DNA from: Planctomycetota bacterium
GTDB taxonomy: Bacteria > Planctomycetota > Planctomycetia > Isosphaerales > Isosphaeraceae
DNA length: 64,000 bases
Direction: 5' to 3'
NCBI GenBank assembly: GCA_028291545.1
Contig: JAQGHR010000159.1
Location: 62,001 to 126,000, forward strand
The notes beneath the pieces are model-generated. The model did no database searches, was not told the origin of the DNA, and saw only the letters and a list, made by a program, of their open reading frames with translations. Shown piece after piece: positions 4,793 through 62,855 of this stretch (the first letter of the stretch is position 1; the number at the start of each line of letters is the position of its first letter). Both the position numbers and the translations under genes were made by a program.

Positions 4793-4856
4793 GCGTCCGC
4801 CCTTGGGAGGTGGATGATTTGCAACGAACGGCGTGATCGAGCCGGAGAGTCGGCGA

Positions 4857-8254: not shown

Positions 8255-8265
8255 ACCCCGAACGC

Positions 8266-9630: not shown

Positions 9631-9949
9631 GGAGACCTCGTGGTTGCTGGGGGAGCGGTCATCCTATCGGCTCGGCCCTGGCATGGCAAATCAGAACGAG
9701 GTCAATCTCAAGGATCGACCGGCCGCGTGTTGAAGGCGAACGCAACGAACCAGCAGGCCGACTGATCTTCGGCTCCCGATCAAGGGAAATCGGGTGTCAG
9801 TCGCCTGATGCGGTTACCCGGTTCAGCGATGTCATCCATCAGATGCGGACGGCGCAGGCCTTGCCCCGGTACGCGGGACATGGCCGCGCAAACTCTCGAT
9901 CAAGGTACCTGCGTCCGCCGATCGCTCGGATGAGCGACGAAACGGGTCC
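9631..9949. other. Intergenic stretch of 319 bases
   Basis: This separates the start of the prpD-like gene from the stop of the alpha/beta hydrolase gene, both on the minus strand. It should hold the prpD promoter, but no good -10/-35 pair was found. A short imperfect hairpin (CCCGAT...ATCGGG near 9776-9795) has no T-run. No gene is supported. Confidence 0.5.
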
Positions 9950-11878: not shown

Positions 11879-11988
11879 GGACGGGTCACTCCCTCGACCC
11901 CCGCTCGACGCGATCCGTGCGCCGAACCGAGATTGGACACGGTATCATACGGCTCTCTTATCATCGGTCAAGCCGACTCATCGTGCGG

Positions 11989-12342
11989 TCACGCCGCCGA
12001 GGACGTCTCGTCATCGCGGCTTCCCACCAACTCCAGACCGTCGCGAACCTGGGCCGACTGAACGACAAGCTGCTGGAGAATCTCGACCTGGTCCTGAAGC
12101 CGAGTCAGCTCTCGTACGAGGCCGTCGAGCAGCAGGTTGGTCTCATTGCGATAAGTGCCTACCTCGGTTCGGGTGTGGCTGATTCCCAGGATCACCTGAT
12201 CCAATCGCGGTTGTATATCCTCGCGGATTGCGGCCGCGGTGAACGATTTTCCCTCGGCCGCGATTTTTCGAGCGATCGGGCGACGGATCGGACCCGTCAT
12301 TCGCCAACCTGTTCGCGCGAGGGATTTGAGGAACCGTTTCAC
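11989..12342 (-). CDS. Small basic/coiled-coil protein coupled to glycosyltransferase
   Basis: This 117-residue protein starts at a GTG whose GTGA overlaps the stop of the glycosyltransferase gene. GGAGG lies seven bases before it inside that gene. The first 30 residues are strongly basic ([28 protein letters not shown]). The rest is a predicted helix/coiled coil (GLVRELTRLQDQVEILQQLVVQSAQV). There is no membrane segment and no family I recognise. Its place as the last cistron of the Wzm/Wzt/glycosyltransferase run suggests a membrane-associated accessory to polysaccharide assembly, but that is inference. Confidence 0.68.
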   Translation of the reverse strand: MKRFLKSLARTGWRMTGPIRRPIARKIAAEGKSFTAAAIREDIQPRLDQVILGISHTRTEVGTYRNETNLLLDGLVRELTRLQDQVEILQQLVVQSAQVRDGLELVGSRDDETSSAA

Positions 12343-48300: not shown

Positions 48301-48599
48301 CCCCAGAGCAGAAGTGAGGCCCAGTCCTCGTTCCCCTCGAGCTCGGGGTACTCGATCAGCAGGAGCAGGTCCGGCAGTGGCGAGGCCGGGTCGAGGCCGA
48401 GTTCGTCTGGTCCCACGGCCTGTAACGCGACGGATGCGCTGACAGTCAAACTCGTATGATGCGCATGATGAAGCCCGAGGACGGTGGATTCTTGTTCGTA
48501 CTTGATGACCCTTCGGAGAGTCCGAGACGACACGAGACGGACGCGAGGATCCACGGACCGAAGGGCCTTTTCGAGCGTTTCCACCGTCTCCGAGCCCAT
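45390..48599 (-). CDS. Large multi-pass membrane protein of unknown function
   Basis: This 1069-residue protein has no family I recognise. Residues 1-510 are soluble and largely helical, with a Pro-rich acidic linker (PDPPPPRAFEDKPPPAPDLSPDD) near 225-250. From about 525 to 830 there are six or more hydrophobic segments, for example LYVVLPYGGAFGALV, VLALGTLILFAIH, LPFAAAAFATVFIL, ATSYAVLSLFLGTRIG, IKAVFGVIWKIITYVIRIF and WTLVVFLPGLAGFFVWEL. The C-terminal 220 residues are soluble again (HHVEIPIQHFINRGLLAFL). The ATG at 48599 is preferred over an earlier Met because GAGGAT precedes it. It is divergent from the PVC cytochrome gene. Confidence 0.85.
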   Translation of the reverse strand: MGSETVETLEKALRSVDPRVRLVSSRTLRRVIKYEQESTVLGLHHAHHTSLTVSASVALQAVGPDELGLDPASPLPDLLLLIEYPELEGNEDWASLLLWGWRRLFHASVHAVFATKFESGMLDSAAVSAKIGRIDRVTFQEIRGVLDQEGWLLNPEDEVATYEEFAAVYLEFRHFSRILLGAYFPGIEDFSAIDAILSEDIEGDALFQTTRPDGAPDPPPPRAFEDKPPPAPDLSPDDVAPPKSEARYRLLLKLADRARRMGNVVRSAILRTRAATLVGPARAGQARGGAEDDLDRLASRIVKALGLEESALPRWRPALSALLQLTRRGTWTAEARILYDLQSLCVEQEREVFEVNLVGWLISFGKRPLKRPLPNLKLIRISTHLRRALARLPRSRIGEPERSILTAFLVSASDAAEETTRERFRPLIGRALERADFRPANLPERVSFERMTEELLDEVVDRSYLSMGDVRDAISRSDLRQPDLAGPLDLWRGDRVLKANRKFAVSLEGVYHRGEIYLRLLQRFSQLAFGTRIGRWLTLYVVLPYGGAFGALVTVEELLGLLHFHRDFKHYQNVLALGTLILFAIHSARFRDLLSLLLHRAWRILRAVLIDTPAWLLKRPAVRALLASPAFDLIQRLVLRPLPFAAAAFATVFILNHDRRIAAGFAATSYAVLSLFLGTRIGRLTEEIVWDAGIKAWKRLSVDFLPGLLRFILDLFDAILETVERILYMVDEKLRFRSGQGRVIFWIKAVFGVIWKIITYVIRIFINLMVEPTINPVKHFPTVTVAAKMILPEWLHIANAISRPFAFLGPVPSTAIGWTLVVFLPGLAGFFVWELKENWRLFEANRPMFLRPTMIGHHGETMRRLVLPGFHSGTIPKLFTKLRRGVRFACLKGDPRLERKAREGLHHVEIPIQHFINRGLLAFLIDCHRFAEGEIRVCEVKLATNRVKVILDTAGQGGDRVAISFENDNGFLIGKVMETEWVRRLSEDRRRTLDASLAGSMVRAGVDRVVGLSATGTQLIHGSMGSINPELSRSTPRPRIAWMDWVDFWARECPLAPEFSSEPQPVSAT

Positions 48600-48816
48600 G
48601 ATCGTCGATCCTCGGACTGCTTCTGGACTCCGCGACGTCTCAGCCGACCAATCTACCCGATAATCGATCGCGGCCCTAGCGATTGCGAACATGGATTAGG
48701 CCCTTCTCGCCGACCTATCCGTTGGGGGCTTTCGAAACGGTCACGTATCGGGCAAGATCAACTCCTGATGGACACGCTCACGGACGCCCGCTTCATTTCT
48801 CCCTCGGAACGAATCC

Positions 48817-51800
48817 ATGTTCAGGCTTTCTTCTCTCCTGATTGCCCTGATTGCGCTCTCCGACACAGGGTCAACGTCCCGATCGTTCGCCAACACCCAG
48901 AACCCGGCCGGGGGGACGTTACCCACGGATCAAGCCGGCAAACCGCTCAATCTGGATTTCGAGCTGGGCTCCCTCAAAGACTGGACGGTCGACGGGGCCG
49001 CGTTCAAGGACGCTCTGATCGAGGGAGACGCCGTCGGAAGCCGACGATCGGACATGAAGAGCGAACACCAGGGCAAATTCTGGGTCGGCTCCTATGAACG
49101 AACCGGAGATGTTGCCCAAGGAACGCTCACATCGGCGACATTCAAGGTGACGAAGCCGTGGGCGAGCTTCCAGATGGGCGGCGGATCACATCCTGGGACT
49201 CGCGTCGAACTCATACGCAACGATTCGAAGGCCGTGATTTTTGAAGCGAGGGGTGACGACACCGAGAATCTCAAGCCGGTCATGGTCGATCTGGCTAAGT
49301 TTCAGAATCTGGAGATCGTCATTCGAGTGGTGGACAACGATTCCGGACCCTGGGGGCACGTCAATTTCGACAATTTTCGCCTCCACGATCAGAAACCCAG
49401 CATGCCCGAGCGACCGCGCGTTTCGACTGCCGACGACTACGCGAACTCCGGGCTTTCGCCGACCGACGCGGCCAAGGCGATGACCGCCCCGCCCGGATTC
49501 AAGATCACGCTTTTTGCAGGTGAGCCCGATGTGGTCCAGCCCATCGCGATGGCCATCGACGACCGGGGTCGGGTCTGGGTGGCCGAGGCCTACTCGTATC
49601 CTCATCGCGTGGCACCGGAGAAGGCTCGCGATCGGATCTTGATTTTCGAGGATGCCGATGGTGACGGTAAGTTCGACAAGCGAACCGTGTTTGCCGACAA
49701 ACTCAATCTCGTCAGCGGCCTAGAAGTCGGATTCGGCGGCGTTTTCGTCGGCGCGGCCCCCGAATTTCTCTTCATCCCCGACAAGGACGGGGACGACAAG
49801 CCGGACGGACCGCCCGTCGTGCTGCTCGATGGGTGGGGCCAGCACGATACGCATGAGACCTTGAATTCGTTCGCCTGGGGGCCGGATGGGTGGCTCTACG
49901 GCTGCCATGGGGTGTTCACGTTTTCCAATGTCGGCAAACCTGGTACGCCCGCGAAAGACCGAACACCGATCAATGCGGGGATCTGGCGTTATCACCCCAA
50001 GAAACACAAGTTCGAAGTCTTTGCTCACGGGACCTCGAATCCCTGGGGCGTTGACTGGGACGAACGCGGCCAGGCCTTCCTCACCTCATGCGTCATCCCG
50101 CACCTCTATCATGTCATCCAGGGTGGTCGATACGAACGCCAGGCGGGCGGGCATTATAATCCTTACACGTATGACGATATCAAGACTGTCGCGGATCACC
50201 GTCACTACGTTGGCGGCAATCCCCACGCCGGAAACGGTCGGTCCGATTCGATGGGTGGCGGCCACGCTCATTCCGGCGCGATGATCTGCCAGGGCGAAGG
50301 ATGGCCCGAGGAATATCGCGGGTCGATCCTGATGAATAACATCCACGGAGCGAGGCTCAACCGAGACACGTTCTCGCCAAAGGGCTCGGGGTTCGTCGGC
50401 TCGCACGCGCCCGATTTCCTCATGGCGAACGATTCGTGGTCGCAAATCGTGAGCTTGAAACAGGGACCGGACGGCTCGATATTCATGATCGACTGGTACG
50501 ACAAGAACCAGTGCCATCGCGTCGAGGATGGAGCCCACGACCGCACGAACGGCCGCATATTCAAGGTGTCGATTCCTGGCGCCGATCCGAAAAAGAAGTT
50601 CTTCCTCAATGACCCGCGAAAGCTGCCGGAGCTTTCCTTCGTCAAATCCGTGAGCTCGCCCAACGAATGGGTCTCGCGACACGCCCGCAAGCATCTGCAA
50701 GAGAGTGGCGGAAGCCCTTTGGCAAAGCGCATGTTCGAAACGTTGCTGACTAGCCCAAGCTCAGGTCTCAAGCCCCCGATCAGGCTACGATTGCTCTGGG
50801 CCTTGCACGCCATGAGTGGCCTGAACGAGGAAGTGATCAAGCATTCCCTCGCAAGCGACGACGCCCATCTCCGCGCCTGGACGATCCAACTTGCCATGGA
50901 GGACGAAACTCCCTCGGGCGAGACGCTAGCCACGTTCGCCCGGATGGCGAAGTCGGACCCATCCCCCGTGGTTCGCCTCTACCTCGCCTCCGCCCTCCAG
51001 CGCATGCCGCCGGCGTCTCGCTGGGTGATCCTTGAAGGCCTCGTCTCGCACGATGAGGACGAGACCGACCCCAATCTCCCATTCATGGTCTGGTACGCGG
51101 CCGAGCCGCTGGCAGTGGTCGATGCCTCGCGGGCGTTACAACTCGCGGTTTCTTCGAAGCTTTCGCCGATCTTGCCATTCATGACCCGACGGATCGCCGC
51201 GATCGGCTCGGATCAGGCGATCAGGCTCCTCGTCGAGGAGCTGGGTCGCGTCAAACCGAGCGCCCAGAAGTTGGCCATCCTGGAAGGGTTGGAATTGTCG
51301 CTCAAGGGCCGGCGCCAGGTCGCGATGCCGCAAGTGTGGCCCAAGGTCTTCGAGGCCCTTGCGGCGGATTCCGATGCATCACTTCGTTCCCGAGCCACGG
51401 CCCTTGGGGTCACGTTTGGCGACTCCTCCGCAATGAAGTCTCTTCGCAACGTACTCACTTCCGAGAAGGCGGGGGCATCGCAACGTCAGGAGGCGCTCGC
51501 CGCGCTCCTCAAGGCACGCGACCCCCAATTGCCCGCGACCCTGTTGCCCTTGATTCAGTCGGATTCAACTCTTCGCGCCGCGGCAATCCGCGGCCTGGCG
51601 TCGTACGAGGATTCGAGCACGTCGAAGGCGCTCCTGGCGATCTATGCCAAACTGCCCTCGACCGAGAAGCGAGACGCCCTGAACACCATGGCGTCCCGGG
51701 TCTCGTTCGCGACGGCTCTACTGACGGCCGTTGGCGAGAAAAGGATTGCCGCGGCGGACCTCTCCGCCGACCTCATCCGGCAGCTTCGCAACCTCAAGGA

Positions 51801-52875
51801 TGCATCGATCAACGACCAGATCGCCAAGGTTTGGGGCACCGTTCGAGAGACCGATTCGAACAAGGCCCGGCTGATCGCGGACTTCAAGGCTCGCGTCAAA
51901 GCCGGATATCAACAGAACCCCGACCCCATGCTCGGCCGGGCCATGTTCGTGAAAACGTGTGCCCAATGCCACACGCTTTTCGCCACCGGCGGCAAGGTTG
52001 GCCCGGAATTGACAGGCTCGAACCGGGCCGACCTGGACTACATCCTCTCGAATGTGCTCGATCCCAATGCCCTGATCGGTAAGGATTACCTCGCGCATGT
52101 GATCGCAACCAAGGATGGCCGCGTCCTCACGGGTATCATCAAGAATGAGGACAAGGATGCCATCACCTTGCTCACGGCCAATGAAACGCTCACCGTTCCT
52201 CTGGGCGATGTTCAGGAGCGCAAACCGAGCGAAAAATCGATGATGCCGGACGATCTGTGGACACCTCTCACGGATTTTGAGGTGCGGTCCCTGATCGCCT
52301 ATCTCGCCAGCCCTTCTCAGGTGCCGGCGCTCGCCACGCCCGAAACTGCATCCACTTTCTTCAATGGCCGCGACCTGACAGGCTGGCAGGGCGATCCGAA
52401 GCTCTGGACGGTCGAGAACGGCGAGATTGTCGGCAAGACGGCTGGCCTCAAACGGAACGAATTCCTCCGATCGGATCTGGCCGCCACGGACTTCAAACTG
52501 ACGGTCCGGGTCAAGCTGCTCAAGAACGAGGGGAACAGTGGAATCCAGTTCCGCAGCGTCGCCCTACCCGACGGTGAAATGAAAGGCGATCAAGCCGATG
52601 TCGGAGCCGGGTGGTGGGGAAAACTCTACGAGGAGAATGGCCGGGGTCTCCTCTGGAAGGAGTCCGGCGAAGCTCACGTCAAGCCGGGTGAGTGGAACAC
52701 CTACGAGGTCGTCGCCGCCGGCTCAAAGATCACGACCAAGATCAACGGCAAGCTCTGCGTCGATCTCGATGATCCTAGCGGGGCAAGACGAGGAATCTTC
52801 GCGTTCCAGCTCCATTCCGGCGGACCGACCGAGGTCCGATTCAAGGACATCAAGCTGGAGTTACTTGGGAAGTAG
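48817..52875 (+). CDS. Exported PVC-type cytochrome/dehydrogenase-HEAT-DUF1080 protein
   Basis: This 1352-residue protein has a signal peptide (LSSLLIALIALSDTGST). Domains in order: a jelly-roll-like module (about 45-195); a beta-propeller of the membrane-bound dehydrogenase type found in the PVC group (about 220-585, starting APPGFKITLFAGEP, with VWVAEAYSYPHR); HEAT-like repeats (about 600-1020); a cytochrome c domain with heme motif CAQCH at 1048-1052 followed by GGKVGPELTGSNR; and a C-terminal DUF1080/3-keto-glycoside hydrolase-like domain (about 1175-1350, TFFNGRDLTGWQG). It probably oxidises or cleaves carbohydrates in the periplasm. A strong terminator follows. Confidence 0.93.
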   Translation: MFRLSSLLIALIALSDTGSTSRSFANTQNPAGGTLPTDQAGKPLNLDFELGSLKDWTVDGAAFKDALIEGDAVGSRRSDMKSEHQGKFWVGSYERTGDVAQGTLTSATFKVTKPWASFQMGGGSHPGTRVELIRNDSKAVIFEARGDDTENLKPVMVDLAKFQNLEIVIRVVDNDSGPWGHVNFDNFRLHDQKPSMPERPRVSTADDYANSGLSPTDAAKAMTAPPGFKITLFAGEPDVVQPIAMAIDDRGRVWVAEAYSYPHRVAPEKARDRILIFEDADGDGKFDKRTVFADKLNLVSGLEVGFGGVFVGAAPEFLFIPDKDGDDKPDGPPVVLLDGWGQHDTHETLNSFAWGPDGWLYGCHGVFTFSNVGKPGTPAKDRTPINAGIWRYHPKKHKFEVFAHGTSNPWGVDWDERGQAFLTSCVIPHLYHVIQGGRYERQAGGHYNPYTYDDIKTVADHRHYVGGNPHAGNGRSDSMGGGHAHSGAMICQGEGWPEEYRGSILMNNIHGARLNRDTFSPKGSGFVGSHAPDFLMANDSWSQIVSLKQGPDGSIFMIDWYDKNQCHRVEDGAHDRTNGRIFKVSIPGADPKKKFFLNDPRKLPELSFVKSVSSPNEWVSRHARKHLQESGGSPLAKRMFETLLTSPSSGLKPPIRLRLLWALHAMSGLNEEVIKHSLASDDAHLRAWTIQLAMEDETPSGETLATFARMAKSDPSPVVRLYLASALQRMPPASRWVILEGLVSHDEDETDPNLPFMVWYAAEPLAVVDASRALQLAVSSKLSPILPFMTRRIAAIGSDQAIRLLVEELGRVKPSAQKLAILEGLELSLKGRRQVAMPQVWPKVFEALAADSDASLRSRATALGVTFGDSSAMKSLRNVLTSEKAGASQRQEALAALLKARDPQLPATLLPLIQSDSTLRAAAIRGLASYEDSSTSKALLAIYAKLPSTEKRDALNTMASRVSFATALLTAVGEKRIAAADLSADLIRQLRNLKDASINDQIAKVWGTVRETDSNKARLIADFKARVKAGYQQNPDPMLGRAMFVKTCAQCHTLFATGGKVGPELTGSNRADLDYILSNVLDPNALIGKDYLAHVIATKDGRVLTGIIKNEDKDAITLLTANETLTVPLGDVQERKPSEKSMMPDDLWTPLTDFEVRSLIAYLASPSQVPALATPETASTFFNGRDLTGWQGDPKLWTVENGEIVGKTAGLKRNEFLRSDLAATDFKLTVRVKLLKNEGNSGIQFRSVALPDGEMKGDQADVGAGWWGKLYEENGRGLLWKESGEAHVKPGEWNTYEVVAAGSKITTKINGKLCVDLDDPSGARRGIFAFQLHSGGPTEVRFKDIKLELLGK

Positions 52876-52896: not shown

Positions 52897-52933
52897 GAAA
52901 ACGCCGTGCTCCCGATGGGGAGGCGGCGTTTTC
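52897..52933. terminator. Bidirectional intrinsic terminator
   Basis: GAAAACGCCG (52897-52906) and CGGCGTTTTC (52924-52933) are exact inverted copies. Inside them CTCCC/GGGAG extends the stem around a GATG loop. The A-run on one side becomes a T-run on either strand, so it can stop both the plus-strand gene ending at 52875 and the minus-strand gene ending at 52969. Confidence 0.85.
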
Positions 52934-52968: not shown

Positions 52969-55900
52969 TCAGCCGGCGGGATTCCACTTCGCACGGAGCG
53001 CATCGAGCCAATCCGCCGGGGGCAATCCGTAGGGCCGGAACTTCTCAAGCTTTCCGGCCTCCTCGCTGGAGAAAAAGGCGCGATTCTCGCCGAGACGGTT
53101 GGCCACAGGGGAATCGATGAGGTTGCTGGAATCGGCTGGACTCATCTGGAACAGGACGCGCATCTCGAATTCACGGAGCGCCTGACGATCGAAGGCGCGG
53201 TTGGCGTTGTTCAATGAGTCGCACCAGATGATCGTGTGAACGCCCAGCGCTGGACCTTCTCTCAGGATCGTGCTGAATAGCTTCGCGGGACTGACAGCTT
53301 TCTCTTCACCCCTCCGGCCATAGCTGAAATCGTCATCCTGCTTGCGCAAGTCCCGGAAGCGAGGTAGGTCGTGGATGAACAAGAACATCGGGATGGTTTC
53401 ACCTGAGTTCGCCTGCCGGCGCTCAACTTCCGCCGTAACGTCGGCAAGAATTGCCGCCGTATCACGAGTCCCTCCCAACTGGAGAGACTGGGGAAGAATC
53501 TCGACAAGACTCTTGATCCGTCCCGAGAAGGGCGAGTCTTCGGGTGTGCCGTCGAGTGCGTAGAACCGCGCCGAACGGGGAAGTTGTGCCGCAAGCCCAA
53601 GCAAACCTGCCACGGCGATACCGATCGCCATCTCATCATTCTGTCCGATCACAAGCAGATTACTCCCGCCTTGGGCGCGGAAGGGCGCGGAGGTCGGATC
53701 CTTGATGGCCACGGCTTCGCCCAACCAGGCGTGGACGATGCCGAACCGCTGAGTCGGATCTTCCGATCGCGGCTGTGAAAACACGGGGTGTTGGGTGAGA
53801 TCCGAGGGCTTATTTCCCTCGAAGACGATCTGAGGTCGTGGCGTGATATGTCGGTCTCGGGCGAGTTGAGCGAGTGCCTTGAGGTAGGCCTCCCGCTTGG
53901 CGTCGGTGAGCCAGACAACCTGGAAGACGTGGTTCCCTTCGACCTGCCCGTTCGCGTCGTTGTAGATTGCCTCACCCGGACGAGACAGAAGTCTCGCCGC
54001 GGCATTTTCTTCGTTCAGAATCAGGTGGGCGTCGGCCTCGCTGCACTGGAGAGCGATTCGAACGGCCATCTGACCGAGCGTGCTGCGGGCGAGCGAGTAC
54101 GCACCGCTGAGGGTCTGAGATCCGAGAATGACGTGAATGCCGAACGCGCGGCCTTGCCTGACGAGACGGTCGAGCAGAAGGGCGGTTTCCTGGGCGAGTT
54201 TGTCATCCTCGACGAAAAATTCTTGAAACTCGTCGACGATCAGCAACACGCGGGGCAGCGGCGTTCCTGAACCCGTTGCGCGGTAACCCGCGAGATCTTG
54301 AACCCCGAGGTCGCGAAAGGTATCACCCCGGTTCTTGAGTTCGGAATCGAGCCGTTGGAGCACGCTGAGCCCGAACTCACGCTCGCTCTCGACGGCGATG
54401 ACCCGGGCGTGAGGTAAGGCGTGGGTCGCATACGTCTTGAACTCTACGCCTTTCTTAAAATCGATGAGATATAATTCGATTTCATCCGGGCCATAAATCA
54501 GGGCCGAGTTGGTGATCAGAGCGTGCAGCAACGTGGATTTGCCCGAGCCCGTTCGTCCGGCCGTCAGAACGTGCTGTGAGGTTCCTCTACCGAGCTTGAG
54601 CGCCTGCAACTTGGTCGCGCCCGATCGTCCCAGCGGGACGGAGATGCTGGAGCCACTGTCGCCCTTCCAGTAGTCTTCGGGCTTCGGTGCGATCACCTCG
54701 AACGGGACCTCGACCCTGTTGGCATCACGAGCCGCCTCGCCCAATCGATGCAACAGTCGGGTCATTGGCTCTGGAGGTGGCGGTTCATCCAGGATCAGCG
54801 GGAATGGCTCGAACACCGGGTTACGGAGCAAGAATCGGCCGTCTCGCCAGGAGATGCGGACGGACGACTTGACGATTTCGTCCTTCGTGATGCTGGGCGG
54901 CAACGCCTGGCTCGTGTCGAGACCAAGAATCAGGTACAGCCCGCACCTCGGCCCACTCCTGGCGATTGCCGCGAGGCGCTTCGCCGTCGGCTCGGAGAAG
55001 CCGGCGGGAAAGTCCGCCACGACCAGGACGCGATAGGGTTCCGCGACTTCCGCGGCTTGCTCGTTGTACGCTTCGATGGTCGGGAATTCGTTCCGAAGGT
55101 AATTCTGAATAACTGTCTCGATGTGAAGATTCAGCTCCGAAAGCCTCTGGTCGATCTGTTGCGGCTCCGTCCAGATCCGCGTGTTGACCAGTGCCTCGGC
55201 GTAATCCGCAAGGTGCATAAACGCGGCAAAATTTCGACCCAGGCCGAGAGGGTCAAGAATCGTGAATCGAATTTTGCCCGGTGGCAACGCGGTAAGGAAG
55301 CGAAGCATGAGCGCCTGCATCGCCTCGATGGAGCGTTTGCGTCCTGCCTCGCCCGCGAATTCGAATGTGACCGAGGCACGCTCGGGGAAACTTAGCAATG
55401 CCGGCAAATGGATCGCGTCGGGAGCCATCGCACGCAGACGAGGATCCTCCGAGATCCCCCCAGGGATCCGGTCGAGCGGGATCGTCACGTCACCGAATTT
55501 GATTGCCTGAGGGATCGTGCTGATCGGCCGCCAGGACGACTCGGAAAATCCCGCCCAGTCGGGGAACCGGGCCGCCAACGTGTCATGAATCGCCGACGTG
55601 TCCGACAGGAGCTTCCGGGTCACAGTGGACCAGGAATCCGCGAGCGATTGCCAGTCGGCTCGTTGCCGCGCCTCGGCACTCTCGATCGCCTGCCGGTGTC
55701 TCGCGTCGGCGGATGCGAGGGCGGCGGCATGCTTGACGGAGATCTCTGCCTTTCGCCTTGATTCGGTCTCGGCAACCTCTCGGACGATACGATCCTTAAT
55801 GCTGGTCGCCTCTTCGGCTCGACGAGACGCCGCCTCGTCCGCGTCGCGGATCTTATCATCGCGCATCCGCGTTGCCTTCTCGATCACGGAAATTCGTGTC

Positions 55901-56925
55901 TGCTCGGCTCGTGTAAGATCGGTATCTCTTCGCCTGGTTGCCGCCTGGATCCGCTGCTCAAAGGTATTTGCCACATAGCTCTGGGCACGGACAGCCAGTG
56001 CCTCTGACCGCGACAGGGCCGTGAGAAGGGGTATCTGTACCTCGTCGATCTTGGAGCGTGACGTCCTGACGATCCACCCTCTCAAGACGAATCCGATCGC
56101 AACCGCGACCACGATGCAGACAGCCGCCCCCGCCTTCAGTCCGAGAAGATACCAGGAGGGATACGCAAGGAGGAGGATCGGCAGGAGAAAGACCCAGGCC
56201 ATTCGCGGGCCTCGAAATGCATTGGGAAGGCGCAGTGCTTCGAGCCTGACGAGCAGCGCGTCCGCCTCTTCTAGAGTGGTATGGAGAGCGGGGAACGGGT
56301 CGTCAGACTCGTCGAATTCGATCGCTTGCTGGGTCGAATCGCCAACCCGAGAGACAACGAAGCCTCGATAGGCGTGGAATACCAACTCCGTCTCGGTCTT
56401 GAGGACGGATATCGATTCGCGTTCGTTGGCAAGTACGCTTGACATCTCCTTACGCCACTCGTTCGATCCCTTTTCCGAGGTTTCGAACATGGTCCCCGCT
56501 TCCCACTTCGCAGCCTCGTGGGCGGTTTGCGCCTCATCGATGGTGCGGCGATAGCGGGCATTGGCCGTCTTTCGTAGGGTGAGTCGCTCGCTTTCGGCGG
56601 ATTGTATCTCGCTGGTAAATTGCGTTGCCGACTGTTCACGGGCCTCGGCGCACGTCTGCGCCAACTCGACGGTCTCGGTGCGGCGTTTCTGTTCCGCCAA
56701 CTCGATGGCTTCACGATGAGCAAGACTCGCGCGGCGGACGGCGGCCGCGTGAATCGTCCGGCACGCATCCTCCGCCGTCGATCTCTCGGCAGCGAACCGA
56801 GCTAATTCGCCGGGGATCTCCGTCCAAGTCCGGTAGAGATCACCCGATTCGGCAACACCATCTCCGTCACTGCGATTCGTGGGAGTGGGGATTGGTTCGG
56901 CGAGCGAGGTGTTCGTGGCGGTCAT
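52969..56925 (-). CDS. Membrane FtsK/SpoIIIE-type ATPase (EccC-like)
   Basis: This is a 1318-residue protein. Regions in order: a charged coiled coil (about 37-190); two membrane helices (about 241-287, WVFLLPILLLAYPSWYLLGL and AAVCIVVAVAIGFVL); a second coiled coil (about 300-440); then three ATPase-like domains. The first (about 474-740) has a broken P-loop (GEAGRKRS). The second has intact Walker A GRTGSGKST (Gly790-Thr798) and Walker B LLIVDEF (Asp898-Glu899). The third (about 1060-1318) is degenerate (VIGQNDEMA). This pattern fits type VII secretion EccC/EssC-like motors rather than the DNA translocase FtsK. It is the last gene of a unit with a WXG100-like protein, 3 bases after its neighbour. 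Confidence 0.88.
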   Translation of the reverse strand: MTATNTSLAEPIPTPTNRSDGDGVAESGDLYRTWTEIPGELARFAAERSTAEDACRTIHAAAVRRASLAHREAIELAEQKRRTETVELAQTCAEAREQSATQFTSEIQSAESERLTLRKTANARYRRTIDEAQTAHEAAKWEAGTMFETSEKGSNEWRKEMSSVLANERESISVLKTETELVFHAYRGFVVSRVGDSTQQAIEFDESDDPFPALHTTLEEADALLVRLEALRLPNAFRGPRMAWVFLLPILLLAYPSWYLLGLKAGAAVCIVVAVAIGFVLRGWIVRTSRSKIDEVQIPLLTALSRSEALAVRAQSYVANTFEQRIQAATRRRDTDLTRAEQTRISVIEKATRMRDDKIRDADEAASRRAEEATSIKDRIVREVAETESRRKAEISVKHAAALASADARHRQAIESAEARQRADWQSLADSWSTVTRKLLSDTSAIHDTLAARFPDWAGFSESSWRPISTIPQAIKFGDVTIPLDRIPGGISEDPRLRAMAPDAIHLPALLSFPERASVTFEFAGEAGRKRSIEAMQALMLRFLTALPPGKIRFTILDPLGLGRNFAAFMHLADYAEALVNTRIWTEPQQIDQRLSELNLHIETVIQNYLRNEFPTIEAYNEQAAEVAEPYRVLVVADFPAGFSEPTAKRLAAIARSGPRCGLYLILGLDTSQALPPSITKDEIVKSSVRISWRDGRFLLRNPVFEPFPLILDEPPPPEPMTRLLHRLGEAARDANRVEVPFEVIAPKPEDYWKGDSGSSISVPLGRSGATKLQALKLGRGTSQHVLTAGRTGSGKSTLLHALITNSALIYGPDEIELYLIDFKKGVEFKTYATHALPHARVIAVESEREFGLSVLQRLDSELKNRGDTFRDLGVQDLAGYRATGSGTPLPRVLLIVDEFQEFFVEDDKLAQETALLLDRLVRQGRAFGIHVILGSQTLSGAYSLARSTLGQMAVRIALQCSEADAHLILNEENAAARLLSRPGEAIYNDANGQVEGNHVFQVVWLTDAKREAYLKALAQLARDRHITPRPQIVFEGNKPSDLTQHPVFSQPRSEDPTQRFGIVHAWLGEAVAIKDPTSAPFRAQGGSNLLVIGQNDEMAIGIAVAGLLGLAAQLPRSARFYALDGTPEDSPFSGRIKSLVEILPQSLQLGGTRDTAAILADVTAEVERRQANSGETIPMFLFIHDLPRFRDLRKQDDDFSYGRRGEEKAVSPAKLFSTILREGPALGVHTIIWCDSLNNANRAFDRQALREFEMRVLFQMSPADSSNLIDSPVANRLGENRAFFSSEEAGKLEKFRPYGLPPADWLDALRAKWNPAG

Positions 56926-56928
56926 GGC

Positions 56929-57141
56929 TCAGGAGCATTCTCGATAGGCTCGCGACAGGACGTCGCAAATGGTCTGCATGGCGCGGAGAGTGGACGTGGC
57001 CTGAGAGTCGATCGGCTCAAATCGCTTCCGTTCGAAGTCTTGCCGGATCGTGTCTCTCCAACCTTCCTCGCTCTCGTCCCAATGCGATCGAAGCGTCTTG
57101 ATCGCGTGACGAAGCTTGCTGGTGCCCGACCCGACATACAT
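56929..57141 (-). CDS. Small protein of the WXG100/FtsK unit
   Basis: This 70-residue soluble, mostly helical protein carries a WxxSEEGWRDTIRQDFE stretch and a C-terminal helix (TSTLRAMQTICDVLSRAYREC). It has no signal or membrane segment. Its ATG overlaps the upstream stop by one base (TGATG), and its stop is three bases before the ATPase start, so the four genes are almost certainly co-translated. The paired Trp and DF spacing recall WXG100-like helical hairpins, but the match is loose. Confidence 0.75.
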   Translation of the reverse strand: MYVGSGTSKLRHAIKTLRSHWDESEEGWRDTIRQDFERKRFEPIDSQATSTLRAMQTICDVLSRAYRECS

Positions 57142-57767
57142 CAGGATTGCTCCGCTTGTAGCTTGGTGTCGTCCTCGGCTGTCGGTGTGTCTTCCGTCTT
57201 GGCGACCGCGACCCGATCGGGTGGTGAGCTCGAAACCGCCACGGTTGATGAAACGAGCGACGGTTGCGGAGCGGCCGTCTCGGGCGGCGTTAGCCTGAGG
57301 TATTCGTCAAGCGCGACGATCATGCGATCGAGCATCTCCACCGATCGCTCGACGTCGAACTCGATCATGTCCGAGAACGGCCTGGCCTGACTCTCGTACT
57401 CCATCACCGCACGCTCGACAACCGGGAGCCAACGGTTGACGTTCTCGACTTTCTCCTGGGCCTCCTCCAACCGGTGCTTCGCCTCTCTCACGGCCTCGCG
57501 CTGCTCGGAATCGTGGGCCTGCTGGCCGGGGGCGATGCCGAGTTGCTTTCGGCTGAGTTCCGCTTTCGCCGAAGACAGTTTTTCCGTTCGGCGTTTCACC
57601 TCAGCCTGCCAGTAGAGCCGCTGGTCATGCGTAAGCCAGTCGATCGCGCGACGGATCTCGGACTCCATCGAGCCGAGCGCATTTCGAGAGTCATCCGCGA
57701 ACAGGAGGAACGCCTCGCGCACGGCGCGGAGGACGTCGATCGATGAGACATCGACTGGTGAGGCCAT
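57141..57767 (-). CDS. Coiled-coil protein of the WXG100/FtsK unit
   Basis: This is a 208-residue protein. About 20-160 is almost continuous helix with heptad character (YWQAEVKRRTEKLSSAKAEL, REAKHRLEEAQEKVENV). The last 45 residues are Pro/Ser/Thr-rich and probably disordered. It has no signal peptide or membrane segment. GGAG lies seven bases before the ATG, and it lies 12 bases after the WXG100-like gene. It could be a secreted partner or a chaperone of the system; the sequence does not decide. Confidence 0.78.
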   Translation of the reverse strand: MASPVDVSSIDVLRAVREAFLLFADDSRNALGSMESEIRRAIDWLTHDQRLYWQAEVKRRTEKLSSAKAELSRKQLGIAPGQQAHDSEQREAVREAKHRLEEAQEKVENVNRWLPVVERAVMEYESQARPFSDMIEFDVERSVEMLDRMIVALDEYLRLTPPETAAPQPSLVSSTVAVSSSPPDRVAVAKTEDTPTAEDDTKLQAEQS

Positions 57768-57779
57768 CGGGCGGCTCCG

Positions 57780-58052
57780 TTAGCGTTGACGGAGATACTC
57801 TTCCGCGCGGTCAGCCTTGCGAATCAGGAAGGGAACGTGCTCGTCGGCGACCTCGATGAAACGGGAGAGAACCTGCATCGTCGATTCGAACTCTTCGGCA
57901 AACTTGTCGTGCTCGCGGTCTCGCCAACTCTGGCCCAGGCCGAGCAACTGGCTGTGAAGGGCGCTCAACTGCTCGTGCAGGCCCATGTTAAATTGCTTGA
58001 GGTTGTTGGCGAATCGGCGCAATTCGCTGGGATCAACATTGGCCTGGGACAT
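57780..58052 (-). CDS. WXG100-like (ESAT-6 family) protein
   Basis: This is a 90-residue, all-helical protein with the size and pattern of WXG100 type VII secretion substrates: helix 1 (PSELRRFANNLKQF...LSALHSQLLGLG), a central turn with Trp43 in SWRDREHDKFAEEF, and helix 2 to the end (DKADRAEEYLRQR-like tail). The turn reads W-R-D rather than W-x-G. The C-terminal YxxxD/E export signal is absent (Y-L-R-Q-R). It is the first gene of the unit with an EccC-like ATPase, which supports the reading. Confidence 0.8.
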   Translation of the reverse strand: MSQANVDPSELRRFANNLKQFNMGLHEQLSALHSQLLGLGQSWRDREHDKFAEEFESTMQVLSRFIEVADEHVPFLIRKADRAEEYLRQR

Positions 58053-58240: not shown

Positions 58241-60190
58241 TCATTCCTGAGCAGGCACGACGTCTCGAATTGCCTCCAGGGCGGCCGGGTTTTCCAGGCT
58301 CGACAGGTCGCCCGCGTCGCCGCCGACGGCTGCGGCGCGGATCGCCCGTCGGAGGATTTTCGCGCTCCGGGTCCGGGGCAACTCCGCGACGAATCGAATC
58401 GTTTCCGGCGCGAAGGATTTTCCGAGCGATTCGGCGACAAGGGTTCGGAGTTGTGCGATGAGAACGTCATCGCCCGGCACTCCAAGTCGGACGACCACGA
58501 AGGCCCAGATGACTTCGCCTTTGACCATATCCGGCACGCCGATGGCCGCAGCCTCTGTCACGAGGGGATGGCCCACGAGGACCGATTCAATCTCGGCCGG
58601 GCCGATCCGTTTTCCCGCGATCTTGATTGTGTCGTCGCTCCGCCCGTGCAGGAACCACTCGCCATCCTCGTCGACGGAAGCCCAGTCGCCGTGAACCCAG
58701 ACGTCGGGCCATCGCGACCAGTAGGTACTCAGATAGCGTTCGGGATCGCGCCAGAGTCCCCGCGTCATGCCCGGCCAAGGCTTTCGGCAGACCAGTTCGC
58801 CGACCTCGCCTCGTATGGATCGTCCCTCGGAATCGACGACGTCCATCGCCATTCCAAGCGAGGGACCACCCAGGGAGCACGGCTTGATCAGTTCGCCAGG
58901 ACGCACGGACAGGAGACAGGCCCCGACCTCGGTCCCCCCCGAAAAATTCACGACCGGACACCGGCCGCCTCCAACGTTGTCGAGATACCATCGCCAGGGA
59001 TCGGGATTCCAGGGCTCACCGGTCGAGCCCAGGATTCGCAGGCTCGAAAGATCATGCTTTGCGACCGGCCCCTCGCCATGTTTCATGAGCGATCGGATCA
59101 GGGTTGGTGAGAGGCCGAGAATCGTGACGCGATGTCGCTCAACCTGCGACCAGAGACGATCCACGTCCGGGAAGTCCGGCGAGCCCTCATAAAGGAACAA
59201 CGAGCCGCCGAGCGCCAGCCCGCCGATGACCTCCCAGGGCCCCATGATCCAGCCCATGTCCGTGAACCAGTACAGCCGGTCGTCGTCTCTCAGGTCTCCC
59301 TGATGTGCGACTTCCTGGGCGATCTTGACCAGGAATCCACCGTGGACATGGACTGCCCCCTTGGGTCGGCCCGTCGTGCCAGACGTGTAGACAATCAGGA
59401 ATGGGGCCTCGGAGTCCATCGGTTCCGACGCACATTCCGGGGACTCGGTCGCAATGGCGACATCGAACCAAACGTCGCGGGATGGATGCCAAGGAACGTC
59501 GCAATTCAGGCGACGTACGACCAAAACCGTCTCAACCGAAGGCGCAAGCGAAACGGCCTCATCGGCAACCTCCTTGAGGGCGATCCGCCGACCTTTCCGC
59601 AGGAAGCCGTCGCTCGTGATCAGGAGCTTTGCCTCGGCGTCGGTCAGACGATCGGCGACGGCGGAGGAGCCGAAACCGGAGAAGATCGGGAGTGCGATCG
59701 CGCCGATCTTCGCGATCGCCAGGAGCGACATCACGGCTTCCGGGATCATCGGCAGCATCACGGCGACGCGATCGCCCTTTGCCACGCCCAACCTTCGGAG
59801 GGCGTTAGCGAGTCGGTTGGTATCCGCATGAAGCTCACGGTAGGTGAAGGATCGGACGGCCCCATCCTCGCCTTCCCAGAGGATCGCGACCTTTTCACTG
59901 CGCGATGAGCTAGCGTGGCGATCCAGGCAGTTATAGGCAACATTCAGCGTTCCGCCGACGAACCATCGTGTCCAGGGGATGCCACGGGAGGTGTCGAGGA
60001 CCTGTTGGTAAGGTTCGAAGAACTCAATCCCCAGATCTTTGACGACGGCGTCCCAGAACCAGGCGATGTCGTCGATCGACTTCTGAACGAGTTCCCCGGC
60101 ATTCGCCAGGCCGAGACGGTTCGCGAACCGTGCGATGTTGCTGTCTTGGGCGAGGTCCGAGGGAGGGAGCCAGGCGCGGGAGGCGGTCAT
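58241..60190 (-). CDS. Acyl-CoA synthetase (AMP-forming, acetyl/acetoacetyl-CoA type)
   Basis: This 649-residue member of the ANL superfamily activates a carboxylic acid through an acyl-adenylate. Core motifs are LIVYTSGTTGRPKGAVHVHGG (P-loop), NFSGGTEVGACLL, WVHGDWASVDEDGEW and the C-terminal GRSDDTIKIAGKRIGPAEIES, with the catalytic Lys in RTRSAKILRR. The N-terminal extension (FWDAVVKDLGIEF...WTRWFVGGTLNVAYNCLDRHA) is of the acetyl-CoA synthetase kind. As last gene of a homogentisate operon, it could activate acetoacetate released by fumarylacetoacetate hydrolase; that is inference. The ATG at 60190 is 14 bases after the flavin reductase stop. Confidence 0.9.
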   Translation of the reverse strand: MTASRAWLPPSDLAQDSNIARFANRLGLANAGELVQKSIDDIAWFWDAVVKDLGIEFFEPYQQVLDTSRGIPWTRWFVGGTLNVAYNCLDRHASSSRSEKVAILWEGEDGAVRSFTYRELHADTNRLANALRRLGVAKGDRVAVMLPMIPEAVMSLLAIAKIGAIALPIFSGFGSSAVADRLTDAEAKLLITSDGFLRKGRRIALKEVADEAVSLAPSVETVLVVRRLNCDVPWHPSRDVWFDVAIATESPECASEPMDSEAPFLIVYTSGTTGRPKGAVHVHGGFLVKIAQEVAHQGDLRDDDRLYWFTDMGWIMGPWEVIGGLALGGSLFLYEGSPDFPDVDRLWSQVERHRVTILGLSPTLIRSLMKHGEGPVAKHDLSSLRILGSTGEPWNPDPWRWYLDNVGGGRCPVVNFSGGTEVGACLLSVRPGELIKPCSLGGPSLGMAMDVVDSEGRSIRGEVGELVCRKPWPGMTRGLWRDPERYLSTYWSRWPDVWVHGDWASVDEDGEWFLHGRSDDTIKIAGKRIGPAEIESVLVGHPLVTEAAAIGVPDMVKGEVIWAFVVVRLGVPGDDVLIAQLRTLVAESLGKSFAPETIRFVAELPRTRSAKILRRAIRAAAVGGDAGDLSSLENPAALEAIRDVVPAQE

Positions 60191-60204
60191 GCGAAAAACT
60201 CTTC

Positions 60205-60813
60205 TCACACAGGTCGTTTGACGGTGAAGAGGTCGGAAGTTCGACAATACCAATCGCCGCCGAGCCTCCCGATCGACTTGAGCTTGTGGGGATCGACTCG
60301 ACCGAGATCATCAAGAATCGAGTCATCGACATGAATCGCGATGATCTCGCCGATAACGAGATTCGCCGCCGTTGGGCCATCACCAATCGGGACGACTTGA
60401 CGGAGACGGCATTCGAAATGGGCCGGCGATTCCGCAATGCGAGGGGGTCGGACCATGACCGAGGGGAGGAGAGTCAACCCGGCGAGTTCGACTTCGCTTT
60501 CACCGCGAGGCAGTTCGGCCGAGGAGAGCACCACGGCCTGGGTCAGCGATTCGACCGCGGCGTTCAGGACGAACTCACCAGTCGCCTCCACATTCAAGAG
60601 GGTGTCTTTTCGGGTGCCATCCCGCCGGAGCGTGGGTGAAAAAACCGCGACCGGAGGATTTGCGCCGAAGACGTTATAGAAACTGAATGGGGCGAGGTTG
60701 ACCTGTCCTTCCGCATCGATAGTCGTCACCCAGCCGATCGGCCGAGGCGTGACGATCCCGACGAGAAACTGGTAGACCTCAATCGGAGACGAACCTGCGA
60801 CGTCGATGAACAT
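60205..60813 (-). CDS. Flavin reductase-like FMN-binding protein
   Basis: This 202-residue split-barrel flavoprotein has family signatures VGIVTPRPIGWVTTIDAEG at the N-terminus and NLAPFSFYNVFGANPPVAVFSP. Members reduce flavins with NAD(P)H or serve as partners of monooxygenases. Members close to this type are common next to aromatic-degradation genes. GAGG lies close to the ATG. It lies between hmgA (81 bases away) and the acyl-CoA synthetase (14 bases), so it is probably part of the operon, though its step is unclear. Confidence 0.88.
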   Translation of the reverse strand: MFIDVAGSSPIEVYQFLVGIVTPRPIGWVTTIDAEGQVNLAPFSFYNVFGANPPVAVFSPTLRRDGTRKDTLLNVEATGEFVLNAAVESLTQAVVLSSAELPRGESEVELAGLTLLPSVMVRPPRIAESPAHFECRLRQVVPIGDGPTAANLVIGEIIAIHVDDSILDDLGRVDPHKLKSIGRLGGDWYCRTSDLFTVKRPV

Positions 60814-60894
60814 GCGGCCTCGTGGGCGTTGGAAAGTGCGCAGGGGAACGAAGTTGAGCCGTTAGAGGTCAGCGATCGTCGCTTGAATCGCAAA

Positions 60895-62064
60895 TCAATC
60901 AATCCAACTCAGGGGATAGCCCGGATCGTCCATCGCCATGGCCTGACGGGTAAGCCGTAGCGGTCCAATCGTGTCCACCATCACCGCAAGTTCGTCGGTC
61001 CGGGTCATCGTTCGGCTGGCGACGATGGTTCCCGGATGGGGGCCATGGGGAATACCTCGCGGATGAAGTGTGATAGAGGACTCCTCGATCCCTCGTCGGC
61101 TGCCGAACCTTCCGCGGACATAATACAAAACCTCATCGGCCTGGACGTTGGAATGCGCGTAGGGGACCTTGATTGCCTCTGGATGTGTGTCCAGGAGTCG
61201 GGGAGCGAACGTGCAGATGACGAAGCCAGGTGCTTCGAAAGTCTGCTGTACGGGAGGAGGCTGATGAATCGTCCCGGTGATCGGCTCGAAATCATCGGCG
61301 TTGAACGTGAACGGATAGGCCATCCCGTCCCAGCCGACGACGTCAAACGGGTGGTTCGCCAGGACGTAGCGGGTGAGCCGGCGATCGTCCCGGATCAAGA
61401 CCGGCGTTTCCTCGTCGCGGTCGATCGTGTCGAGAGACCCCGGTCCGTGAATGTCTCGCTCGTAGTATGGTGAGCCGAGCTTGAGTTGGCCGTCCGGATT
61501 CAGATATCTGGACGGTACCGTCACGCTCCCGGCGGATTCCAGGACCAGCAGATCAGCCTCGTCCGCGGGATCGAATTCGATCCGGTACGTCGTGCATGTC
61601 GGGATGACGACGTAATCGTACGGGCGAATCGCCAGAGGGCCGAACATGGTATGCAGCGTCCCGCGCCCACGATGCACGAAAAACACCTCATCGGCTGCGG
61701 CGTTTCGATAGAGCTCCGATTGATTCGTCGCCGGGCGGCAGCGAGAGATCGTGACGTCCTTGTTTGTCAGAATTGGGATTCGGCCGGAGATGATGTCTCC
61801 CGAACGAGGGATCGTCGCGGTCTTCAGGTGATGATGACGCAACTCGGCTTGATCCGAGTCGTCGATCTCGACGGACCCTGCCGATTCGACTCGCAGAACG
61901 CGCGTGGGAGGCCGAAGATGGTAGACGATGCTGTAAGCGCGACCGAAACCGCCGGTCGTGATGACCTCTTCGTAATAGATACCCTCACCGCAATATCCTC
62001 CTTCACGGCGGTGCGCGATGTGCCGCTTCGGAGGTACGGAGCCGAGTGATCGATAGGGAGGCAT
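60895..62064 (-). CDS. hmgA: Homogentisate 1,2-dioxygenase
   Basis: This 389-residue cupin enzyme opens the ring of homogentisate to maleylacetoacetate with Fe(II) and O2. Motifs are RNAAADEVFFVHRGRGTLHTMFG, DYVVIPTCTTYRI, YPFTFNADDFEPITGTIHQPPP, and the iron-ligand region HSNVQADEVLYYVRG (His, Glu) followed by LHPRGIPHGPHPG (His). It is shorter than the enterobacterial/human form (about 430-445), as in other bacterial short HmgA-like proteins. Preceded by the FAA hydrolase gene (28 bases) and hppD. Confidence 0.9.
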   Translation of the reverse strand: MPPYRSLGSVPPKRHIAHRREGGYCGEGIYYEEVITTGGFGRAYSIVYHLRPPTRVLRVESAGSVEIDDSDQAELRHHHLKTATIPRSGDIISGRIPILTNKDVTISRCRPATNQSELYRNAAADEVFFVHRGRGTLHTMFGPLAIRPYDYVVIPTCTTYRIEFDPADEADLLVLESAGSVTVPSRYLNPDGQLKLGSPYYERDIHGPGSLDTIDRDEETPVLIRDDRRLTRYVLANHPFDVVGWDGMAYPFTFNADDFEPITGTIHQPPPVQQTFEAPGFVICTFAPRLLDTHPEAIKVPYAHSNVQADEVLYYVRGRFGSRRGIEESSITLHPRGIPHGPHPGTIVASRTMTRTDELAVMVDTIGPLRLTRQAMAMDDPGYPLSWID

Positions 62065-62092
62065 GGTAACACCTCGCGTCGCGACCTGGCGG

Positions 62093-62806
62093 CTAGGGAT
62101 GCGAGACGACAGGGTTGCGGAGAATCCCGAGCCGCTCTATTTCCAATTCCACCACGTCCCCGGGCTTGAGCCAACCCCCGACCGCCGCGGGCGTCAATTC
62201 CAGGATGCAACCGGTGCCGACCGTGCCGGAGCCGATCACGTCACCCACCCGCAAGGTCGCGTCGCGGCTGGCATGAGCCAGGATCTGCGGCCAGGTCCAG
62301 TGCATCGTGCCGGAATTGCCTTGCGAATAGACCCGGCCGTTGACTCGGGCGGTCATCCCAAGATGGAGGCGACCATCGCGATAGCGATCTTCGAGTTCGT
62401 CCATCGGCACCACCTCCGGCCCGAGTGTCGTGGCGAAATCCTTGCCCTTGCTCGGCCCGAGGCCAATCGCCATCTCCTCCTTCTGCAGATCGCGGGCGCT
62501 CCAGTCGTTCATGATGGTGAACCCGGAGATGGCCTCCATCGCACGATCGTCGCCGGGCAGGTCGCGACACTCTCGTCCGATCACACAAGCCAGCTCGAGC
62601 TCGTAATCGAGTGCAGAGGAGCCCTGCGGTGCCCAGACGGCGACTCCGTCACCGATGACGCTCGCCGGATTGGAGAAATAGAAGGCCGGGACTCGATACC
62701 ATTCGGGAGCGACGTCCAGACCACGCTGAGCCCGGCAGGTCTTGACGTGCTGTTCGAACGCATAGAAATCCCGCAGACTCGTGACGGCCGGCAGCGGCGT
62801 TCGCAT
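62093..62806 (-). CDS. Fumarylacetoacetate hydrolase family protein
   Basis: This is a 237-residue FAA-hydrolase-fold protein. Metal ligands are visible in ALDYELELACVIG (Glu, Glu) and ISGFTIMNDWSARDLQ (Asp), with WTWPQILAHAS and GDVIGSGTVGTG later. It probably cleaves fumarylacetoacetate to fumarate and acetoacetate, as its place between hppD and hmgA suggests. The start is uncertain: ATG at 62806 is the first Met in frame before the conserved segment (TSLRDFYAFEQHVKTC) and has only a weak GCGAGA upstream. The protein lacks the larger N-terminal domain of eukaryotic FAH. Confidence 0.87.
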   Translation of the reverse strand: MRTPLPAVTSLRDFYAFEQHVKTCRAQRGLDVAPEWYRVPAFYFSNPASVIGDGVAVWAPQGSSALDYELELACVIGRECRDLPGDDRAMEAISGFTIMNDWSARDLQKEEMAIGLGPSKGKDFATTLGPEVVPMDELEDRYRDGRLHLGMTARVNGRVYSQGNSGTMHWTWPQILAHASRDATLRVGDVIGSGTVGTGCILELTPAAVGGWLKPGDVVELEIERLGILRNPVVSHP

Positions 62807-62855
62807 CGGATTTCTCGCGGCGCAAAGGGCGGATAGGATCGAGATCTGATGGACG

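What the first reader, a model, noticed from the sequence alone, without database searches (positions are those of the whole stretch)
52969..58052. Four-gene WXG100/FtsK-like unit, a candidate minimal type VII-like secretion system
Seen: a 90-residue helical-hairpin protein with a W-R-D turn, a 208-residue coiled-coil protein, a 70-residue protein with a Trp-rich motif, and a 1318-residue membrane ATPase with three FtsK-like domains. They are joined by spacings of 12, -1 and 3 bases and closed by a strong terminator. Known: WXG100 proteins and EccC/EssC motors form the core of type VII secretion in Actinobacteria and Firmicutes. No EccB, EccD, EccE, EsaA or EssB-like gene is present here. Inference: a reduced planctomycete version with coiled-coil parts replacing the usual membrane partners.
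Basis: partly seen in the sequence, partly recalled or inferred. Interest (0 to 1): 0.75.

Follow-up and report, generated by a model that had tools for sequence, protein, structure and literature searches.

The report
Minimal WXG100–EccC-like export unit, Planctomycetota
Four genes that keep company across the Planctomycetota encode a stripped-down relative of the type VII protein-secretion motor, and they co-occur even in genomes where they are scattered over the chromosome, so they very probably form one working machine, which looks like a protein exporter in bacteria with two membranes.

Summary
The four genes lie as described, with gaps of 12, -1 and 3 bases and a strong bidirectional terminator. 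The 90-aa protein is a WXG100 member by Pfam's own cut-off; its nearest solved structure is HP0062 of Helicobacter. The ATPase has two TM helices inside an N-terminal coiled coil and three FtsK-fold domains; only the middle one has Walker motifs. Its best structural match is EccC. The 70-aa protein has an invariant W-x-D and is probably a second WXG-like hairpin. The 208-aa protein is a long helical hairpin with a loose tail. Of 392 Planctomycetota genomes, 63 hold any of the four genes and 54 hold all four. In some closed chromosomes the genes sit at three or four separate places yet all are kept, which argues for one functional unit and against a mobile cassette. The class itself was noted in a 2012 table footnote ("solo WXG", three-domain ATPase, only the middle active) and in work on TerY-P/CoCoNuT loci. 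Apparently undescribed: the membrane-anchored, phylum-wide, four-part version, its dispersal, and a paralogue without WXG100. Export is inferred, not shown. "Coiled coils replace the membrane partners" is unsupported. New variant of a known kind.

The parts
57780..58052 (-). F3: 90-aa WXG100 protein; W43-R-D45 turn (57918-57926), F51; length fixed at 90 aa in the full-length homologues
   Evidence: Pfam WXG100 35.5 bits (cut-off 27.3) and 22/22 homologues match; best PDB match HP0062 3fx7/2gts E 8e-10
57141..57767 (-). F1: 208-aa long alpha-helical hairpin (helices 8-77 and 87-159) with disordered C-tail; no TM
   Evidence: AlphaFold2 pLDDT about 97 over the hairpin; no Pfam family; no significant fold match
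56929..57141 (-). F2: 70-aa short hairpin-like protein with invariant W21, W28, D30 (W-x-D-x5-F turn); start overlaps F1 stop by 1 base
   Evidence: alignment A3; hhalign to F3 E 2.5e-4, prob 43; WXG100_2/WXG100 top the Pfam tally of its homologues, best E 5e-4
52969..56925 (-). 1318-aa membrane ATPase: coiled coil - 2 TM - coiled coil - FtsK-like D0, D1, D2
56137..56193 (-). first TM helix of the ATPase (residues 245-263)
   Evidence: hydropathy 1.88
56068..56124 (-). second TM helix of the ATPase (residues 268-286)
   Evidence: hydropathy 2.47; two such peaks in 37 and one in 13 of 51 homologues
54826..55506 (-). D0, degenerate FtsK-like domain (about residues 474-700), no P-loop
   Evidence: fold; motif table
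53896..54693 (-). D1, the intact FtsK_SpoIIIE domain (residues 745-1010); Walker A AGRTGSGKST 789-798, Walker B VDEF 897-900
   Evidence: Pfam FtsK_SpoIIIE 1.8e-29; near-invariant motifs
52993..53736 (-). D2, degenerate FtsK-like domain (about residues 1064-1311), P-loop replaced by GQN(D/E)
52897..52933 (.). bidirectional terminator hairpin closing the unit and the convergent gene
   Evidence: fold -29.6 kcal/mol, z -4.67

Best explanation
The four genes encode a minimal type VII-like export machine. The ATPase sits in the inner membrane by two TM helices and forms a ring (hexameric by analogy with EccC/FtsK) whose middle FtsK domain hydrolyses ATP, while the outer two domains regulate or bind substrate. 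The WXG100 protein F3 and the short WXG-like hairpin F2 act as targeting partners or activators that dock on the ATPase. They carry the long helical hairpin F1, which is the substrate itself or an adaptor (by analogy with LXG/PPE-type targeting domains), to the motor and across the inner membrane. SHOWN: gene order and conservation, near-perfect co-occurrence even when unlinked, WXG100 membership of F3, ATPase fold and single active site, hydrophobic TM pair, long-hairpin model of F1. INFERRED: that F2 is a true WXG100 homologue, that the proteins form a complex, that anything is exported, and that F1 is the cargo or adaptor.
For: F3 is WXG100 and nearest to HP0062. Among named transporters the ATPase is closest to EccC/EssC, and Foldseek ranks EccC 1.8e-33 first, then other EccC/EssC, then FtsK 1e-16. 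The D1 tree separates it from the planctomycete FtsK branch (100/99) and places it in a group with plasmid WXG100-FtsK systems (93/86) next to EccC/EssC. The four genes co-occur: 54 of the 63 genomes with any of them have all four and 329 of 392 have none; F3 vs ATPase phi 0.94. All four are kept when dispersed on single-contig chromosomes, G037 and G052. Four of the five non-planctomycete ATPase relatives examined (Caballeronia, Helicobacter, Rhodococcus AH-ZY2 and Deinococcus plasmids) have an F3 homologue beside them (E 1e-24 to 3e-6). In Helicobacter a WHH nuclease and a SUKH-type immunity gene lie between WXG100 and ATPase, the mark of exported polymorphic toxins.
Against: No substrate or secretion has been observed. 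No outer-membrane component is known, although Planctomycetota are diderm. EssB/YukC was not found in 40 relatives; the EccB and EccD searches gave nothing but lacked a working positive control. No toxin or immunity gene was recognised beside the window's unit. The paralogue (type B) has F1, F2 and ATPase without F3. F1 shows no sequence or fold link to LXG/PPE.
Confidence: 0.6

Rival explanations
1. An intracellular conflict or stress device: the ATPase, with its WXG-like hairpins and coiled coil, remodels or activates proteins inside the cell (as may be the case for soluble relatives embedded in TerY-P/CoCoNuT loci) and exports nothing.
For: Related ATPases without clear TM helices sit with VWA, PP2C, kinase and CARF genes and a coiled-coil protein with an extra C-terminal part (Caballeronia). 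Bell et al. 2024 note that a mechanism different from EssC is likely for such soluble versions (PMC11090510).
Against: The planctomycete ATPases have a conserved TM pair. The window's neighbours are metabolic and show no such partners, and no defence-type neighbour recurs.
Confidence: 0.17
2. A structural envelope or cell-division complex: a membrane ring with coiled-coil scaffolds, vertically inherited in planctomycete cells, in which WXG-like hairpins are assembly parts and not cargo.
For: Present in every same-family genome sampled, with little sign of mobility. Long helices in F1 and a coiled-coil N-terminus in the ATPase. No effector genes nearby.
Against: The whole set is absent from many complete Planctomycetia genomes. 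A relative elsewhere carries toxin and immunity genes.
Confidence: 0.13
3. A DNA-translocating FtsK/HerA-type motor with small helical partners.
For: D1 is an FtsK_SpoIIIE domain and Foldseek also matches FtsK motors.
Against: The genome has a separate ordinary FtsK (G000:C124). The D1 tree splits them with 100/99 support. Degenerate D0/D2 and a WXG100 partner are EccC-like, not FtsK-like. NCBIfam EccCa scores 102 bits against 23 for FtsK.
Confidence: 0.06

Closest known systems
'Solo WXG' with 3-domain YueA-like ATPase, only the middle domain active (Zhang et al. 2012, Biol Direct 7:18, Table 1 footnote 6, PMC3482391)
   Same: Solo WXG100, three FtsK/HerA domains, only the middle active; planctomycetes are named there
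   Different: The footnote calls them mobile and gives no gene set. Here the unit is chromosomal, conserved across families, has four parts including F1 and F2, and stays complete when its genes are unlinked
Helicobacter pylori HP0062 (WXG) / HP0066 (FtsK), called a minimal type VII set (PMC4978471)
   Same: F3 profile hits the HP0062 structures at E 8e-10, with a shared S-W-R-D turn; WXG plus FtsK pairing
   Different: HP0066 was not compared directly. A related Helicobacter plasmid locus has a nuclease and an immunity gene, which the window's unit lacks
[quoted passage not shown] 2024, PMC11090510)
   Same: Three ATPase domains with only the centre active, long N-terminal coiled coil, two WXG100-like proteins, one without the motif, and a separate coiled-coil protein
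   Different: Those ATPases are reported to lack TM helices; their coiled-coil protein carries a nuclease domain; they are embedded in VWA/kinase/phosphatase operons. The planctomycete unit has TM helices, an F1 without a nuclease domain, and stands alone
T7SSa ESX (EccC) and T7SSb Ess (EssC), with T7SSc-j (Garrett et al. 2024, PMC11217815)
   Same: WXG100 protein plus membrane-anchored tandem FtsK-like ATPase; EccC is the top structural match
   Different: Four NTPase domains are reported for the T7SSc-j ATPases against three here; no EssB-like partner, no linked EsaB/YukD; those types are described only from Bacillota and Actinomycetota

Membership tests
Type VII secretion system (a-j) | WXG100 (EsxA/TsxA) protein | tested here: met
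   Pfam WXG100 over the gathering cut-off, 22/22 homologues match
Type VII secretion system (a-j) | membrane-anchored EccC/EssC-type ATPase with tandem FtsK domains | tested here: met
   EccCa E 2.8e-29, but 102 bits against the equivalog cut-off of 509, so similar in type and not an EccC equivalog; top fold match EccC; two TM-like segments
Type VII secretion system (a-j) | four cytosolic NTPase domains, as reported for T7SSc-j | tested here: not met
   three domains, only the middle with Walker A/B
Type VII secretion system (a-j) | EssB/YukC membrane partner | tested here: not met
   0 of 40 relatives; control rings in B. subtilis
Type VII secretion system (a-j) | EccB or EccD membrane partner | tested here: inconclusive
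   0 of 40 each, but no positive control rang over the cut-off
Type VII secretion system (a-j) | EccE, EsaA or EssA membrane partner | not tested
   no profile search run
Type VII secretion system (a-j) | EsaB/YukD ubiquitin-like protein with the ATPase | tested here: not met
   the only YukD hit (G000:C39) lies in an E2/E1(ThiF)/JAB operon, and YukD was not found in other families that have the system
Type VII secretion system (a-j) | ATPase-dependent export of the WXG100 protein | not testable with these tools
   needs an experiment
Solo-WXG / three-domain YueA-like ATPase class (Zhang 2012) | single WXG100 protein with an ATPase of three FtsK/HerA domains, only the middle active | tested here: met
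Solo-WXG / three-domain YueA-like ATPase class (Zhang 2012) | mobile element | tested here: not met
   in every same-family genome sampled; no conserved neighbours; genes dispersed yet co-retained
CoCoNuT III-A EssC-like extension | ATPase without TM helices | tested here: not met
   conserved TM pair by hydropathy
CoCoNuT III-A EssC-like extension | embedded between VWA genes with kinase/phosphatase | tested here: not met
   flanking genes are metabolic or a DUF7133/3-keto-disaccharide hydrolase protein; no conserved neighbour
FtsK/SpoIIIE DNA translocase | motor domain groups with FtsK | tested here: not met
   FtsK clade separated by a 100/99 branch

The most novel reading that the evidence does not exclude
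Planctomycetota run a genuine stand-alone type VII-like exporter made of only four parts (one membrane ATPase, two WXG-like hairpins, one long hairpin substrate/adaptor), without the usual membrane partners. It serves a conserved non-toxin role, and a second copy works without its WXG100 protein.
Probability: 0.35. Interest if true: 0.8.

Novelty: new variant of a known kind. Interest (0 to 1): 0.6.

Why it matters
Type VII secretion is usually described as a machine of Bacillota and Actinomycetota with several membrane subunits. A vertically kept, four-part version in diderm Planctomycetota would show what the irreducible core is, and would give a simple system in which to ask how a WXG100 protein works with its motor. 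The dispersed but co-retained genes define the part list by genome comparison alone, and the WXG100-less paralogue is a natural experiment on what the WXG100 protein is for.

Tried and rejected
(1) F1 as a WXG100 hairpin: its conserved W44/W53 looked like a W-x-G turn, but the model puts them inside a 70-residue helix, with the turn at 78-86, and profiles do not link it: rejected. (2) YukD elsewhere in the genome as a missing T7SS part: it belongs to an E2/E1/JAB operon: rejected. (3) Finding F3 upstream of the second ATPase copy (type B) by six-frame HMM search: none in any type-B locus. (4) Placing D1 firmly inside EccC/EssC or FtsK: unresolved in the first tree (long branches), clearer after dropping the long rows, but the root is only a midpoint. 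(5) F2 equivalents in the Caballeronia and Helicobacter plasmids: a post-hoc motif [WVM]-x-D-x5-[FIL]-x4-[LF]-x-P fits, but the F2 profile does not beat shuffles (181/1000 and 49/1000): suggestive only. (6) Conserved neighbours as function hints: none beyond the four genes.
Full report
OBSERVATION. The four ORFs, their order, spacing and sizes are exactly as reported. The unit ends at a symmetrical hairpin at 52897-52933 that folds far better than shuffles (z -4.67); it also serves the convergent gene 48817-52875. No sigma-70-like promoter was found by the simple scan.

THE PROTEINS. F3 (90 aa) passes Pfam's WXG100 cut-off (35.5 vs 27.3 bits); 22 of 22 aligned homologues match WXG100 (best E 1e-12), and its profile hits solved HP0062, EsxB and EsxA structures, HP0062 best at E 8e-10 with the same S-W-R-D turn. 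F2 (70 aa) is not recognised alone, but its family has invariant W21, W28 and D30, aligns to F3 around W-x-D (hhalign E 2.5e-4, probability only 43), and its homologues' commonest Pfam matches are WXG100_2 and WXG100 (5 and 4 of 30 members, best E 5e-4). I therefore call it a probable, not proven, WXG-like hairpin. F1 (208 aa) is modelled with high confidence as one long helical hairpin (8-77, 87-159) with a disordered tail; it matches no specific fold and no family.

THE ATPASE. Residues 1-440 are coiled-coil-like sequence interrupted by two hydrophobic segments at 245-263 and 268-286; homologues show two such segments in 37 and one in 13 of 51 cases by a crude threshold. Residues 440-1318 fold as three FtsK-like domains (pLDDT 88). 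Only the middle one has GxTGSGKST and the VDEF Walker B, nearly invariant in the alignment; the others lack them. Sequence profiles prefer EccCa/EssC (102 and 95 bits) over FtsK (23 bits). Foldseek puts EccC first at 1.8e-33, then EccC/EssC fragments, then FtsK. In a D1 tree the planctomycete ATPases and the plasmid WXG100-FtsK ATPases form one side of a branch (93/86), EccC/EssC D1 next to them, and planctomycete FtsK on a separate 100/99 branch; the root is a midpoint and support for the group is moderate.

CONSERVATION. Full-length ATPase homologues occur in all same-family genomes sampled, often in two copies. F3-F1-F2-ATPase order recurs in most loci read, in Isosphaeraceae, Gemmataceae, Pirellulales and Phycisphaerales by record titles. 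A second paralogue (type B; own copy at G000:C92, L032) keeps F1, a 79-aa F2 overlapping the ATPase start, and the ATPase, but has no F3. In 392 genomes drawn across the phylum, F3 was found in 60, F1 in 58, F2 in 61 and ATPase in 60; 63 genomes have at least one, 54 have all four, and most gaps are fragmented assemblies. F3 and ATPase alone give phi 0.94. In single-contig genomes of family f2 the genes lie apart, for example G052 with all four at separate places and G037 with F1-F2 together and F3 and ATPase elsewhere, yet all are kept; in genus g9 of the own family F1 and F2 are likewise away from the ATPase. This is the strongest evidence here for one functional unit, and it speaks against a mobile cassette. 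The genomes are related, so co-occurrence counts are not independent events.

WHAT LIES ELSEWHERE. EssB/YukC is absent in 40 relatives with a working control; EccB and EccD gave nothing but without a working control. The YukD-like hit in the own genome is part of an E2/E1(ThiF)/JAB operon. The window's flanking genes are an aromatic-breakdown-like set and a DUF7133/3-keto-disaccharide hydrolase protein, with no recognised toxin or immunity gene.

RELATIVES OUTSIDE THE PHYLUM. tblastn of the ATPase against plasmids found Rhodococcus, Deinococcus, Caballeronia and Helicobacter. F3 homologues lie beside the ATPase in the Rhodococcus AH-ZY2, Deinococcus, Caballeronia and Helicobacter plasmids (F3 profile E 3e-12, 3e-6, 1e-24, 3e-16); the fifth relative, Rhodococcus pseudokoreensis, has none that is convincing. 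The Helicobacter plasmid has a WHH/colicin-DNase-type nuclease and a SMI1/KNR4 gene between WXG100 and ATPase. In Caballeronia and Rhodococcus the long coiled-coil protein has an additional C-terminal part (sequence; Pfam finds no family), so any domain type there is my reading.

MECHANISM. The best reading is a reduced type VII-like exporter: membrane ring motor, one active ATPase tier, two small hairpins as targeting or activating partners, and F1 as cargo or adaptor. Shown: parts, conservation, single active site, hydrophobic anchor. Inferred: complex formation, direction of transport, cargo.

PRIOR KNOWLEDGE. Zhang et al. [quoted passage not shown] A Helicobacter pan-genome study calls WxG plus FtsK a minimal T7SS set (HP0062/HP0066; PMC4978471). 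Bell et al. 2024 describe a soluble relative in CoCoNuT loci (PMC11090510). Garrett et al. 2024 list T7SSa-j only in Bacillota and Actinomycetota (PMC11217815). I found no paper describing the four-part planctomycete unit, within an open-access library searched by words only. Hence: new variant of a known kind.

Noticed in passing
G000:C39 (locus L228, about 4186-9381): A YukD/ubiquitin-like domain, an E2-like (UQ_con), a ThiF E1-like and a JAB-domain protein lie in a row: a bacterial ubiquitin-like conjugation operon; YukD is found in 20 of 25 same-family genomes and in none of the 15 others sampled.
   Followed up: partly
L032 (G000:C92), F1-F2-ATPase at about 7983-12897: Second paralogous copy of the unit in the same genome without a WXG100 gene; the same type recurs in many family members, with F2 usually 79 aa and overlapping the ATPase start by 4 bases.
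   Followed up: partly
L224 (Caballeronia plasmid) 3289-13644: WXG100, long coiled-coil protein, two small proteins, three-domain-type ATPase, CARF protein, VWA, PP2C and kinase genes in one row: a plasmid TerY-P-type conflict locus with the related motor.
   Followed up: no
L237 (Rhodococcus pseudokoreensis plasmid) 1526-8396: Related ATPase next to Hsp70, TPR and GrpE genes with no clear WXG100 protein.
   Followed up: no
window 45390-48692, minus strand: 1100-aa protein with several hydrophobic stretches and no Pfam or NCBIfam match at all.
   Followed up: no
window 58241-63962, minus strand: Acetyl-CoA synthetase-like, flavin reductase-like, homogentisate dioxygenase-like, FAA hydrolase and HPPD-like genes in a row, suggesting an aromatic amino acid breakdown cluster.
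   Followed up: partly
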